From Bacteroidaceae bacterium (GTDB lineage: Bacteria; Bacteroidota; Bacteroidia; Bacteroidales; Bacteroidaceae), in assembly GCA_017940605.1 (NCBI GenBank), contig JAGAYF010000066.1, positions 1 through 45,606 of the forward strand: 45,606 nt of DNA, in the 5' to 3' direction. The notes under the pieces are model-generated. The model was not told where the DNA came from. It ran no database searches and worked only from the letters and a program-made list of their open reading frames with translations. The position numbers and the translations under genes are program-made. Each line of letters opens with the position of its first letter. Position 1 is the first letter of the stretch. Of this stretch, positions 1,443 through 42,770 are shown one piece after another.

Positions 1443-3464
1443 ATGTCCCCGCGCCGCCCCATTGAGTTGCTTTCCCCTGCCCGCAATCTGGAATGCGGGC
1501 GAGCGGCCATTCTGTGCGGGGCTGACGCAGTATACATCGGGGCACAGGCCTACAGCGCACGCGCCAGTGCCGGCAACTCTGTCCAGGATATACAAGAACT
1601 GGCCGCATTCGCCCATCAATACGGCGCACGCGTCTATGTGGCCCTCAACACCATACTTTACGATAACGAACTGGACTCAGCGCGCCGCTTGGCCCACGAA
1701 CTGGCACAGGCCGGGGCCGACGCCCTCATCACGCAGGACATGGCCCTCATTGACATGCAGCTGCCCCTGCCGCTGCACGCCAGCACGCAGATGGACAACC
1801 GCACGCCGCAGCAGGTGCGCTTCCTTCAGAAATGCGGATTCAGGCAAGCCATCCTGGCACGCGAACTCGGCACGGAGGAAATCGCAGCCATCCACCAGGC
1901 ATGCCCCGACATGGCCCTTGAGGTCTTTGTGCACGGCGCACTGTGCGTCAGCCTGAGCGGGCGTTGCCATGCATCGCAGTACTGCTTTGGGCGCAGCGCC
2001 AACCGAGGCCAGTGCGCCCAATTCTGCCGCCTTGCATTCGACCTGGAGGATGCCGACGGCCGCGTTCTGCTGCACGACAAGCACCTGCTCTCCCTGCGCG
2101 ACATGAACCGAAGCCGCCATCTGGAGGAACTGATGGATGCCGGTGTCAGCTCATTCAAGATAGAGGGCCGCCTCAAGGACATTCACTACGTCAAGAACAT
2201 TACAGCCTACTACCGCAACGCCATTGACACCGTCCTGGAGCGACGAAGCGAGTACCGGCGCGCTTCCTACGGACACAGCCAGCCCGGATTTGAACCTAAT
2301 CCCCTAAAATCGTTCAACCGAGGCATCACCAACTATTTCCTGCACGGCCGCACGCACGACCTCCATTCGTTTGACACGCCCAAGTCCATAGGCGAGCCCG
2401 TGGGCGAGGTGAAAGACATCCGCTCCAACAGGATCAGAGTGGCCGGACTGGCTTCCTTCAGCAATGGGGACGGCATTTGCTACCTGGACCGCGAGGGGCA
2501 ACTGCATGGATTCCGCGTGAACCGCGTCGAGAACAACAACATCCTGCACCCCGCCACGCCTCAGCCCGGACTGATGCCCCACACCCCCCTGTATCGCAAC
2601 GCCGATGCCGCCTTCCAACGCCTGTTGGAACACACGCAGCCCCACCGCGCCATCGCAGTCGACATCAGGCTGGAAGACACCGCACACGGATTCCGACTGA
2701 CCATGCAGGACGAGGCCGGCAGAACAGCCTGCGCCGAATGGGAAGCCGACAAGCTGCCCGCCCGACAACCGCAAGCCGATCGGCAGAGGACCGAGCTGGC
2801 CAAACTGGGCGACACGCCGCTGCGCTGCCGCAAAGCAGAAATCCTGACCCAGCAGGACTACTTCATCCCTGCATCCCTGCTGGGTGAATGGCGGCGTCAG
2901 GTGGTGGCACTCCTGCTGAAGCAACCGCTCACCGCCCCCATTGACGCGCCACGCCCACGGGGCGACGCGCACTACCCCTTTGGGGAACTGGACTACCGCG
3001 CCAATGTGGCCAACAAGTCGGCACTGCAATTCCTATTGCGGCACGGGGCTACCGCAGCCGAGCCTGCGCTGGAGACGCAGACCGATGCCCAGGCCCATGA
3101 CCGCCCCCTGCTGCTCATGACCTGCCGCTACTGCCTGCGCCATGCGCTGGGAAGGTGTCCCCATGACGGAAAAGATGGCAGCGAACAGGGTGAAAGCGGC
3201 AGGCTGAGCGCCGCCAACATGCCCATGCGGCCCAAAAAGGCAAGCTATGCGGCCCAAGAGGCGGACGAATGCGGCCTAAAAAATTTTAAACACGGCCCAA
3301 AACTCCCTTCAACAGGGCGTAAGAAATCAGAGCGTACCCTGCAGACCGATGTATCATTGGAAAAATGGGTTGAACCGCTCTATCTGGTCCTGCCCGACAA
3401 GCGCCGTTTCCGCCTGCGTTTTGATTGCCAAAAATGCCAAATGCTCATATATGCTGCTCCATAG
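1443..3464 (+). CDS. rlhA: U32-family 23S rRNA hydroxylation protein, RlhA type, with C-terminal insertion
   Basis: 673 residues from the ATG at 1443; an in-frame upstream extension to 1263 lies inside metA and is rejected. The start ELLSPARNLECGRAAILCGADAVYIGA and the signature EVFVHGALCVSLSGRC (about residues 160-175), followed by further cysteines, mark a U32 'peptidase'. Collinearity continues through the DUF3656-like middle to the C-terminal cysteine motifs (CRYCLRHALGRC, then FDCQKC), as in E. coli RlhA, which is needed for hydroxylation of 23S rRNA C2501. These proteins are not thought to be true peptidases. The oddity is a roughly 58-residue excess between the two C-terminal cysteine motifs (about residues 577-640), basic and low in complexity. 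Its DNA is a copy of the dispersed repeat seen elsewhere in the window, in reverse orientation. The gene overlaps the next one by 14 bp. Confidence 0.85.
   Translation: MSPRRPIELLSPARNLECGRAAILCGADAVYIGAQAYSARASAGNSVQDIQELAAFAHQYGARVYVALNTILYDNELDSARRLAHELAQAGADALITQDMALIDMQLPLPLHASTQMDNRTPQQVRFLQKCGFRQAILARELGTEEIAAIHQACPDMALEVFVHGALCVSLSGRCHASQYCFGRSANRGQCAQFCRLAFDLEDADGRVLLHDKHLLSLRDMNRSRHLEELMDAGVSSFKIEGRLKDIHYVKNITAYYRNAIDTVLERRSEYRRASYGHSQPGFEPNPLKSFNRGITNYFLHGRTHDLHSFDTPKSIGEPVGEVKDIRSNRIRVAGLASFSNGDGICYLDREGQLHGFRVNRVENNNILHPATPQPGLMPHTPLYRNADAAFQRLLEHTQPHRAIAVDIRLEDTAHGFRLTMQDEAGRTACAEWEADKLPARQPQADRQRTELAKLGDTPLRCRKAEILTQQDYFIPASLLGEWRRQVVALLLKQPLTAPIDAPRPRGDAHYPFGELDYRANVANKSALQFLLRHGATAAEPALETQTDAQAHDRPLLLMTCRYCLRHALGRCPHDGKDGSEQGESGRLSAANMPMRPKKASYAAQEADECGLKNFKHGPKLPSTGRKKSERTLQTDVSLEKWVEPLYLVLPDKRRFRLRFDCQKCQMLIYAAP
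3215..3335 (-). repeat. Dispersed T-tract/GGCCGCAT repeat, copy A, inside the rlhA-type coding region
   Basis: Read on the minus strand this stretch contains TTTCTTACGCCCTG, then TTTTGGGCCGTG, then TTTTTTAGGCCGCATTCGTC, then CTCTTGGGCCGCAT and TTTTTGGGCCGCAT. These follow one another every 21-25 bp. The central GGCCGCATTCGTCC block matches the same block in copies at about 11666, 35900 and 42714. On the plus strand it stays open in the rlhA frame and encodes a Lys/Arg-rich segment including MRPKKASYAA and LKNFKHGPK. Confidence 0.7.
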
Positions 3465-4455
3465 GTTGTTCCTCCTTCTGCTGCCGTTTATGGCCTGCGC
3501 CTGCACCCACCGCGACTACCAGGCCGCCGACCGCTGGGACTTGCCACAGGAGCAGCGCGACTCGCTCGAGTTTGCCCTGACGCGCCACTTTACGGTCAAC
3601 GACAATTTCGTGGTCAGCAGCGATTCCGTGGAACTGCAGCCCTTCCTTCCGCAGGACGGTATGCAGGCAGTGGCCGTGCGCCAGGAAGCCGCATGGGTGT
3701 ACCGAGGTGACAAAGTCGTAGTGGCCCAGACTGTCAAGCTGGACACCGACGGCCACCCTACATTCTACATCAAGGTGGCCCACAACCAGGAGGTCATGGG
3801 CTGGATTACCGAAGATGTCCTGCTGGAGAATGCCGTCCCATGCGACCCCATCTCGCAAGCCATCCACGCCTTCAGCAACAACTACCTGTTTGCCCTTTTC
3901 ATCCTGATGGGGATGGTCGCCCTGCTCTACCTGTACCGCCTGAGGCAGCACAAGCGGCTGCCCATCGTACACTTCAACGACATTGACTCGCTCTACCCCA
4001 CCCTGCTGTGCATGACGGTTGCCGTGGGGGCGACCCTCTACACCTCCATCCGCCAGCTTGCCCCCGACATGTGGGCCGCCTACTACTTTGCACCGTCGCT
4101 CAACCCCTTTGTACAGCCCTGGCCCATCGGCATGTTCCTGCTGTGCGCCTGGCTGACGCTGATTCTCTTCATTGCCTCGCTGGATGACATACGCCAACAG
4201 CTGCACGGATACGATGTACTGACATATACGCTGGGACTGGCCAGCATGGGGCTCGTCCTGTACCTCATCTTCTCGCAGGCCACGAAGATCTATGTCGGCT
4301 ACCCCTTGCTGGGCATCTACATCGGTGCTGCGCTGCACCGATACCGCCGCCAGCACGTAGCCAAGTACCTGTGCGGCAACTGCGGCAAGCCATTGCACCG
4401 CATTGGCCGATGCCCCCACTGCGGAATGCTCAACCGCGAGCATCCCGAACCCTGA
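3451..4455 (+). CDS. Membrane lipoprotein with C-terminal zinc ribbon, unknown function
   Basis: 334 residues from the ATG at 3451, which overlaps the end of the upstream gene by 14 bp and suggests translational coupling. The N-terminus MLLHRLFLLLLPFMACAC is a signal peptide with cysteines at 16 and 18, either of which could be the lipidated one. An outer, probably periplasmic segment (about 20-140) contains a strand-rich region resembling a bacterial SH3-like fold (AAWVYRGDKVV...). Five or so hydrophobic helices occupy about 145-295. The C-terminus carries a four-cysteine ribbon, C308-x2-C311 and C321-x2-C324. Similar zinc-ribbon membrane proteins occur in Bacteroidales, but I do not recognise a function. 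There is no sign of disruption. Confidence 0.75.
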   Translation: MLLHRLFLLLLPFMACACTHRDYQAADRWDLPQEQRDSLEFALTRHFTVNDNFVVSSDSVELQPFLPQDGMQAVAVRQEAAWVYRGDKVVVAQTVKLDTDGHPTFYIKVAHNQEVMGWITEDVLLENAVPCDPISQAIHAFSNNYLFALFILMGMVALLYLYRLRQHKRLPIVHFNDIDSLYPTLLCMTVAVGATLYTSIRQLAPDMWAAYYFAPSLNPFVQPWPIGMFLLCAWLTLILFIASLDDIRQQLHGYDVLTYTLGLASMGLVLYLIFSQATKIYVGYPLLGIYIGAALHRYRRQHVAKYLCGNCGKPLHRIGRCPHCGMLNREHPEP

Positions 4456-11387: not shown

Positions 11388-11638
11388 CCCCTACCTGCCC
11401 TGCCCCAGCACGACATCCATCCTCATAAAGGCCACCTGCCGGTCGCCAATGCACCCTGCAACGGCGGCAGGCAGGTGCTGTTATCGTACAGAATGGTCCT
11501 CCTAGGGGGCACGGCATCCTCCGTCCGCCTCACCATCACTCCTACGCCCGTGAAGCAGGACATACAGCAAACTATATATCAAACGAATACGGAAAGCAAA
11601 TGCCCAAAGCCACCGACGGTGCAAGAGATTCCCTTCAT

Positions 11639-11725
11639 TCATGGTTTTTTACGCCTTGCCGGAATTTTTTCCAGCCGCATTCGCCCACCGCTTACGCCTT
11701 GTCCTCGCTGCTTTTGCGCCTTGGA
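11639..11725 (+). repeat. Dispersed T-tract/GGCCGCAT repeat, copy B
   Basis: Plus-strand order: TTTTTTACGCCTTG (11645), TTTTTTCCAGCCGCATTCG (11665), CTTACGCCTTGTCC (11691), TTTTGCGCCTTGGAGG (11712). Tract centres lie 20-25 bp apart. Compared with copies C and D it lacks one unit between the first tract and the GCCGCAT block. Confidence 0.7.
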
Positions 11726-11972
11726 GGATTCCGTTCATGCGAGCATGTGTTTTTTCGGCCCGTCAACCGCCCCCAACAGCCGTATGCTTGCACTGCCTAT
11801 CACTATTTATATAGGTTCACACGCGCAGTACGCACGGTTTTTGCCCATAGCCATTCATATATATGCATTGGAATTTTCATATAACCATCACGGTATCAAC
11901 GTAAAACAAGCAGAGATGCATAATTTTTCCATATTTTTTAGGAAAGTCCTGCTTGATTTTTGAAGTTTTTTA

Positions 11973-28354: not shown

Positions 28355-28627
28355 GTTTATAGTTGGTAATATTTTTGTAAATATACGAAAAATATTCAAA
28401 ACATCCGCATAATATCAATTATTTCTCTTCTTTATTTACCTAAATTACTTAAATTCAAATGATTTATTATTCATTTTGGTTTTGACATGAAATTTGTACT
28501 GCATCAACATCGGCCATAGCCCTTGTTGCAAGGAAATAGTGGGAACAACAAGTCCCTGCCATGAGATTATTAAGCAACAAGACCCCACTCTATGGGGACA
28601 ATGGTCTGAGTAAGCTAAAACTTAGAC

Positions 28628-28691
28628 GGACTAATTTAAAAAAACTCGGGGAGTTTTTTAAAAAAGTCGGGGAGTTTTTTCAACTTAGTCC
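28628..28691. repeat. Tandem pair of 21-bp palindromic units inside an inverted repeat
   Basis: Outer arms GGACTAA (28628-28634) and TTAGTCC (28685-28691). Inside are two adjoining units, 28639-28659 and 28660-28680, each A6, then C or G, then TCGGGGAG, then T6. The first unit folds by itself (AAAAAACTC/GAGTTTTTT with a GGG loop). The second has one mismatch. The whole can also fold as one long hairpin using the outer arms and the first A-tract with the last T-tract. Terminator, attenuator or protein-binding roles are all possible. Confidence 0.75.
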
Positions 28692-28713
28692 AAGTACTTT
28701 TTCTCACAAGCGC

Positions 28714-35830: not shown

Positions 35831-35966
35831 ACTTTACGCCCAGTGGCCGTCATCGTGTTTTTTTACGCCTTGATGATCCAGCTTTTGCGCCTTGCAGGAT
35901 TTTTCTCAGGCCGCATCCGACGGCTTTTTACGCCCTGTCCTGCGGTGTTTTTGGCCACTTCGGTTT
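35831..35966 (+). repeat. Dispersed T-tract/GGCCGCAT repeat, copy C
   Basis: Plus-strand order: ACTTTACGCCCAGTGG (35831), TTTTTTTACGCCTTGATG (35858), TTTTGCGCCTTGCAGGA (35883), TTTTTCTCAGGCCGCATCCG (35900), TTTTTACGCCCTGTCCTG (35925), TTTTTGGCCACTTCGG (35948). Tract spacing is about 17-27 bp. Copy D has nearly the same order and spacing for the central five units. Confidence 0.75.
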
Positions 35967-42669: not shown

Positions 42670-42770
42670 GATTTTTTACGCCTTGATGGTGGATCTTTCA
42701 CGCCCCGTCGGTATTTTTTCAGGCCGCATTGGTCCGACTTTCACGCCCCGTCCTGCCGCCCTTGCGCCTG
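42670..42770 (+). repeat. Dispersed T-tract/GGCCGCAT repeat, copy D
   Basis: Plus-strand order: TTTTTTACGCCTTGATGG (42672), CTTTCACGCCCCGTCGG (42695), TTTTTTCAGGCCGCATTGG (42714), CTTTCACGCCCCGTCCTG (42738), CTTGCGCCTGCCGCGG (42761). Tract spacing is 20-24 bp. The order and spacing agree closely with copy C. Confidence 0.75.

What the first reader, a model, noticed from the sequence alone, without database searches (positions are those of the whole stretch)
3215..3335. A dispersed intergenic repeat appears to have entered the rlhA-type gene and is translated
Seen: the protein matches E. coli RlhA closely, except that about 58 extra residues lie between the C-terminal motifs CRYCLRHALGRC and FDCQKC. 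The DNA of this excess, read on the minus strand, has the unit order and the GGCCGCATTCGTCC core of the repeats found between genes elsewhere in the window. It stays in frame and encodes a Lys/Arg-rich peptide in a loop between two cysteine pairs. Known: palindromic repeats that add protein segments have been described in Rickettsia, but I know of no such case for this repeat. Inferred: the loop tolerates insertion.
Basis: partly seen in the sequence, partly recalled or inferred. Interest (0 to 1): 0.75.

Follow-up and report, generated by a model that had tools for sequence, protein, structure and literature searches.

The report
Intergenic repeat array inside RlhA-like gene
A DNA repeat that this bacterium otherwise keeps between its genes sits once, in frame, inside a U32 (RlhA-like) gene, adding about 59 amino acids to a loop; several related bacteria carry quite different repeats in the same part of that gene.

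Summary
The U32/DUF3656 (RlhA-like) protein has about 59 residues more than its nearest relatives between its third and fourth conserved C-terminal cysteines. A profile of 110 copies that were not found through the gene copy matches the excess (51.6 bits, E=3e-13). Of 148 mapped copies this is the only one judged to lie inside a gene. The repeat was not found in 398 other family genomes (strict filters), nor by exact pattern in GTDB genomes or IMG/VR.

The repeat is a phased array: 328 of 454 successive box spacings are 21 or 22 nt, boxes are conserved, spacers are no more alike than chance, no RNA fold is supported, and no two mapped copies are closer than 3.8 kb. A genus-mate has an array of the same design with unrelated boxes. 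This suggests sites for a lineage-specific DNA-binding protein (inferred).

In four other lineages the same linker or loop carries that genome's own dispersed repeat, so this part of the gene looks like a recurrent landing site. In-frame bacterial repeats are known (Rickettsia RPE, enterobacterial RU); one gene taking unrelated repeat families is a new variant. Translation and function were not tested.

The parts
1443..3464 (+). U32 peptidase-family, RlhA-like gene (Peptidase_U32 + DUF3656 + C-terminal Cys module), 673 aa
   Evidence: open frame, invariant cysteines C169, C176, C192, C196
3159..3371 (+). segment between C573 and E645 that holds the ~59 excess residues (71 aa here, 12 in the two nearest relatives)
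3218..3328 (-). repeat element: five GCC boxes at 22, 21, 22, 22 nt; profile match 3249-3328, fifth box 3218-3238 (weak on its own, E=0.47)
3263..3276 (-). exact GGCCGCATTCGTCC core (box C)
3123..3158 (+). C-terminal Cys motif CX2CX7C (C562, C565, C573) before the insert
3426..3437 (+). C-terminal CX2C (C663, C666) after the insert
11638..11730 (+). intergenic copy of the element (other unit order)
35857..35939 (+). intergenic copy of the element (one of the 18 copies in profile R1)
42670..42752 (+). intergenic copy of the element (one of the 18 copies in profile R1)

Best explanation
The excess in the RlhA-like gene is a copy of a lineage-specific intergenic element (shown). The element is an array of usually four short boxes (TTTTACGCCTTG and TTTTCAGGCCGCAT types) held 21-22 nt apart, two helical turns, present at about 150 intergenic places that keep a distance of about 4 kb or more (shown for the mapped copies). 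It most likely works as DNA, as a site array for a lineage-specific DNA-binding protein whose contacts are the boxes (inferred). In the RlhA-like gene one array lies in coding DNA, antisense to the gene, in a frame that is free of stops in 57 of 137 copies (shown). It is read as a flexible insertion between the third and fourth conserved C-terminal cysteines (position shown; translation and flexibility inferred). This loop and the linker before the Cys module are places that several lineages have filled with their own unrelated repeats (shown for four others).
For: Profile matches: E=2e-16 (R1) and E=2.6e-13 from 110 copies not found through the gene copy. Unrestricted spacing of successive T-rich GCC boxes: 328 of 454 are 21 or 22, 29 more are 43 or 44; after shuffling letters 1 of 37. 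GCC cores 1.4-2.0 bits, spacers 0.1-1.0. Spacer columns of 134 copies are no more alike between copies than after column shuffling: 19 pairs with 15 or more of 21 against 15.8 expected; variance 5.08 against 4.84, sd 0.14. One of 148 copies inside a gene; a second call, C9:63423, has its likely Met downstream of the repeat. Absent from 18 genus mates under sensitive settings, from 398 other family genomes under strict ones, and by exact pattern from genome contigs and viral contigs. Other repeats in the same gene: TCAATNN heptads in G002 and G007 (185 and 182 genome hits, overlapping ones counted; control 5 each), CTCCCCCTCAAGGGGAG in G016 (23 matches, its own included), CATTTCGACTGAAGCG in L261/G400 (39 hits, its own included).
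Against: No expression or peptide data; no binding protein identified; only one genome carries the element, so selection on the insert cannot be measured. Much of the match rests on box C: with 31 nt masked it drops to 15.5 bits, E=0.046. The excess (about 177 nt) is longer than the recognisable array (111 nt), so about 65 nt are unexplained. The spacing could have another cause than function. Occupied sites are not demonstrably shared between G000 and G001 (3 of 21 against 5 of 40 gene ends). A search for second copies in the same locus found one in 1 of 97 RlhA-like loci. The draft genome is 73% complete in 66 contigs.
Confidence: 0.72

Rival explanations
1. The element is a MITE-like mobile repeat; one copy transposed into the gene and is a neutral passenger, and the boxes have no function.
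For: About 150 dispersed copies, almost all intergenic; P. gingivalis BrickBuilt is a MITE with 23-nt direct repeats, always intergenic (abstract and passages).
Against: Boxes are alike but spacers are not beyond chance; in the pair table only the contig-end copies C6, C27 and C61 are near identical, the next best pair is 0.86. No conserved terminal inverted repeats in 60 nt on either side, only weak further boxes. Copies keep apart.
Confidence: 0.2
2. The insert is kept because the added, moderately basic peptide helps the enzyme, for instance by holding rRNA.
For: 13 K/R against 10 D/E in 71 residues; frame intact; E. coli RlhA acts on a cytidine of 23S rRNA (passage in PMC6747719).
Against: No second genome to test selection; other lineages fill the same stretches with unrelated peptides, which fits tolerance better.
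Confidence: 0.1
3. Assembly artefact: a chimeric contig joins an intergenic copy to the gene.
For: Draft genome of 66 contigs; repeats are a known cause of misassembly.
Against: The gene continues in the same frame on both sides; the downstream neighbour with a W(D/T/I)L...QRDS-like motif follows the gene in 11 of the 16 other genus loci as well; the array lies inside a 45.6-kb contig.
Confidence: 0.06
4. Chance resemblance.
For: Boxes are short and T-rich; with the core masked the remaining match is weak.
Against: E=2.6e-13 with a profile not found through this copy; five boxes in 22/21/22/22 register.
Confidence: 0.01

Closest known systems
Rickettsia palindromic elements (RPE)
   Same: A small dispersed repeat of about 150 bp found in frame inside protein genes (passages of the review PMC10969869).
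   Different: RPEs are palindromic (by name) and nearly half were in ORFs; here a non-palindromic box array, with 1 of 148 copies in a gene.
Enterobacterial RU-1/RU-2/RU-3 repeats in ORFs (PMC2759123: abstract and Discussion read)
   Same: Intergenic repeats that also occur as in-frame parts of annotated genes.
   Different: Per that Discussion RUs have stable long hairpins, and fusions to super-family proteins are at C-terminal regions, not in conserved domains; here the array lies in a loop between Cys motifs and no fold is supported.
BrickBuilt MITE of Porphyromonas gingivalis (PMC4596501: abstract and other passages seen)
   Same: A Bacteroidetes genome, intergenic, direct repeats of similar period (23 nt).
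   Different: 19 copies with leader and tail segments and small inverted-repeat ends; always intergenic.
TAACTGA heptamer direct repeats (PMC4679880: abstract, section list and passages seen)
   Same: About 170 short direct-repeat sets in one genome, mostly intergenic, a few in ORFs, proposed as binding sites.
   Different: Heptamers mostly close upstream of start codons and proposed to act after transcription; here 21/22-nt phasing with spacers, at all kinds of gene junction.
REP/BIME elements (start of abstract in a search listing only, PMC2817692)
   Same: More than 100 copies per genome, binding sites for several proteins.
   Different: Palindromic, and the paper concerns associated tyrosine transposases; the element here is not palindromic, and no transposase was sought.

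Membership tests
Rickettsia palindromic element-like in-frame repeat | copy of a dispersed repeat in frame inside a protein gene | tested here: met
Rickettsia palindromic element-like in-frame repeat | palindromic element | tested here: not met
   RNAalifold: 4 pairs, none with compensatory change; direct box array
MITE | terminal inverted repeats and target duplication | tested here: inconclusive
   no conserved ends in the 60-nt flanks of 137 copies; no empty site available for a target duplication
MITE | copies alike over their whole length from recent copying | tested here: not met
   spacers of 134 copies no more alike than after column shuffling
RlhA (U32 peptidase family) | Peptidase_U32 plus DUF3656 domains | tested here: met
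   (that RlhA has this architecture is recalled)
RlhA (U32 peptidase family) | CX6CX15CX3/4C motif common in the U32 family | tested here: met
   C169, C176, C192, C196 invariant in two alignments; motif from passages of PMC6747719
RlhA (U32 peptidase family) | hydroxylation of 23S rRNA C2501 | not testable with these tools
   NCBIfam gives only matches below cut-off to TrhP, UbiU, UbiV and PRK15447
structured RNA (Rfam) | match to a known RNA family | tested here: not met
   no match at gathering score in the window

The most novel reading that the evidence does not exclude
The repeats are chromosome-marking sites: arrays of boxes on one face of the helix, 4 kb or more apart, read by a fast-evolving DNA-binding protein, so that the box sequence changes between species while the 21/22-nt phasing and the long minimum spacing stay (G000: TTTTACGCC and GGCCGCAT boxes; G001 and G014: TTCCA-N6-TGGAA boxes). 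The copy in the RlhA-like gene would then be a working site that the protein had to accommodate.
Probability: 0.28. Interest if true: 0.85.

Novelty: new variant of a known kind. Interest (0 to 1): 0.62.

Why it matters
It gives a bacterial case of intergenic DNA becoming protein at a place that several lineages have filled with unrelated repeats, so that tolerance of a loop can be told apart from merit of a peptide. The element itself, particular to one genome in sequence but matched in design by a relative's array, and keeping a minimum distance along the chromosome, poses a testable question about what reads it.

Tried and rejected
RNA structure: no supported fold, no Rfam match. Phage or plasmid origin: no match for a 151-nt query around one copy, none in IMG/VR by exact pattern. 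Coding pressure on box D: by hand, an ACGCC box there would put a TAA in frame, but 57 of 137 copies are open in this frame anyway, so no special selection is needed. Sites shared between G000 and G001: a first count (10 of 30 flanking-gene matches within 1.2 kb of a G001 element, 16% of the sequence lying that near) did not hold end by end (3 of 21 against 5 of 40, P=1). Depletion at divergent promoters: 1 of 45 on the contigs searched throughout, but 23 of 140 copies with both flanks overall, so not claimed. Other intragenic copies: 22 open frames through copies were listed and nine read by eye; three of these had no Pfam match; the gene callers put only the RlhA-like copy inside a gene, apart from C9:63423. 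The first repeat scan of G001 failed because the gene caller left 25 pieces of 245 kb as intergenic; repeated with an ORF mask. The L249 palindrome has 5 places in its genome at up to one mismatch and is not counted as a dispersed repeat.

Corrected on checking: one search's mean spacer identity (0.316 against 0.321) is equal by construction and shows nothing; the test used is that. One search's 347 of 348 spacings came from a chain that accepted only 20-23 nt; the unrestricted count is 328 of 454. The excess is 59 residues against the nearest relatives, not 58.

Limits of counts: 148 copies are those found by nhmmer (E<=1e-3) in the stretches fetched; the tool counted 164 matches at E<=0.01, with 150 of 930 candidates scored, and contigs searched throughout gave a few more weak copies. 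137 of 148 were used for box statistics, 134 for the spacer test. For the 95 gaps DNA between the fetched stretches was searched only by the tool. G001 spacing used 149 typed rows, 85 places, with approximated contig lengths; 150 of 792 candidates were scored.

Full report
What is there. The gene at 1443-3464 (+) has Peptidase_U32 and DUF3656 domains and an open frame. In the genus 17 of 19 genomes, the window's own included, have a match. The ten relatives aligned are 48-61% identical; the window protein has 71 residues between C573 and E645, the two nearest relatives 12. Of 97 loci, 68 gave a measurable loop: 93 aa here, 52, 44, 44 and 40 in four, 31-38 in the other 63; 29 did not parse. On the minus strand the excess matches profile R1 at E=2e-16. 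The 18 copies in R1 were found through the gene copy or its core, so I rebuilt the profile from 110 copies found neither way: 51.6 bits, E=2.6e-13; none of the 110 holds the exact 14-mer. With 31 nt around the core masked, what is left is weak, E=0.046 or 0.26. The five boxes keep a 22/21/22/22 register.

The repeat. Boxes are TTTTACGCCTTG and TTTTCAGGCCGCAT types, in a chain of four in 72 of 137 copies, five or six in 20, one to three in 45. Without restriction, 328 of 454 successive T-rich GCC spacings are 21 or 22 nt and 29 are 43 or 44, against 1 of 37 at 21 or 22 after shuffling letters. GCC cores carry 1.4-2.0 bits, spacers 0.1-1.0. In 21 spacer columns of 134 copies, three near-identical contig-end copies left out, pairs are about as alike as after column shuffling. 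No RNA fold is supported. By a simple codon-bias gene caller one of 148 copies lies inside a gene, this one; a second run also flagged C9:63423, whose likely start lies downstream of the repeat. Of 140 copies with both flanks, 50 run along and 28 against two same-strand genes, 39 are convergent, 23 divergent; six lack a flank. The median distance to the nearest gene 3' end is 122 nt (117 copies).

Spacing. The mapped copies are at least 3.8 kb apart (0 of 95 gaps under 3 kb; 26.7 expected if uniform). On six contigs read complete or nearly so and two pieces of a seventh, about 414 kb, 38 gaps have a minimum of 3.9 kb; random choice of intergenic regions gave no such case in 2000 simulations, for either of two pools. 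The gene copy's neighbour on one side is 8.3 kb away; on the other side the contig ends.

Distribution. R1 matches none of the 18 other genus genomes at E<=0.01, 150 candidates scored in each, and none of 398 other family genomes under strict filters, 11 candidates scored in each genome listed. The exact pattern CGCCYYGN{5,9}TTTTTCAGGCCGCAT gave nothing in genome contigs or viral contigs; those scans may leave out very near records.

A counterpart in a relative. In 254 kb of G001 there are 17 arrays of another sequence, TTCCA-N6-TGGAA units of about 21 nt. Profile R2 gives 152 matches in G001, 128 in G014, 5 in G013 and 4 weak ones in G000, none in the other 15. The units are palindromic and match on both strands; 149 G001 rows are 85 places, with no gap under 6.2 kb among 27. 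Sites are not demonstrably shared between G000 and G001.

The gene as a landing site. By reading the linker carries TCAATNN heptads in G002 and G007, with heptad-like stretches in the loop too, TCAAATN in G006 and CTCCCCCTCAAGGGGAG in G016. The heptad pattern has 185, 182 and 38 hits in G002, G007 and G006, overlapping ones counted, and none in G000; the reversed control has 5, 5 and 0. It is not clean everywhere: in G015 the control exceeds the pattern (61 against 38). The G016 stretch has 23 matches in its genome, its own included. L261 carries a CATTTCGACTGAAGCG repeat in the linker, 39 hits in its genome with up to 3 mismatches and one beside the gene. G002 and G007 share the linker type and may be one event, so I count four other lineages: G002/G007, G006, G016 and L261. 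For G006 the TCAAATN form itself was not counted genome-wide, only TCAATNN. A second copy in the same locus was found in 1 of 97 loci. Whether this gene is richer in repeats than others was not tested.

Reading. That the excess is a copy of the intergenic element is as good as shown. Translation follows from the open frame but was not tested. Tolerance is supported by the other lineages. That the element acts as a DNA site array is inferred from phasing, conserved boxes with chance-like spacers, and spacing; no binding protein is known.

Literature. In-frame bacterial repeats are known: RPE (passages of PMC10969869) and RU elements (abstract and Discussion of PMC2759123). BrickBuilt (passages of PMC4596501) and TAACTGA repeats (abstract and passages of PMC4679880) are the nearest by design among papers seen. 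The listings showed no title on 21/22-nt phased, regularly spaced arrays in Bacteroidales; the library holds only open-licence papers.

Noticed in passing
G001 (loci L299-L318), e.g. L307:7945-8059: An analogous array with TTCCA-N6-TGGAA boxes of about 21-nt period, unrelated in sequence to the window's repeat; G014 matches the same profile.
   Followed up: partly
genome G000: Mapped copies of the repeat keep at least 3.8 kb from each other.
   Followed up: yes
L261, linker of the RlhA-like gene: A CATTTCGACTGAAGCG repeat lies in frame in the linker; 39 hits in that genome.
   Followed up: partly
L249 near 4155: A GACGCACGGCCGTGCGTC palindrome lies in the RlhA-like gene just before the Cys module; five places in its genome.
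   Followed up: partly
window 28617-28702: A 43-nt inverted repeat with GGGGAGTTTTTT in both arms, the arms adjoining.
   Followed up: no
window 3450-4455: The downstream neighbour ends in a CGNCG...CPHCG motif and has no Pfam match; a like motif start follows the gene in 11 of 16 other genus loci.
   Followed up: partly
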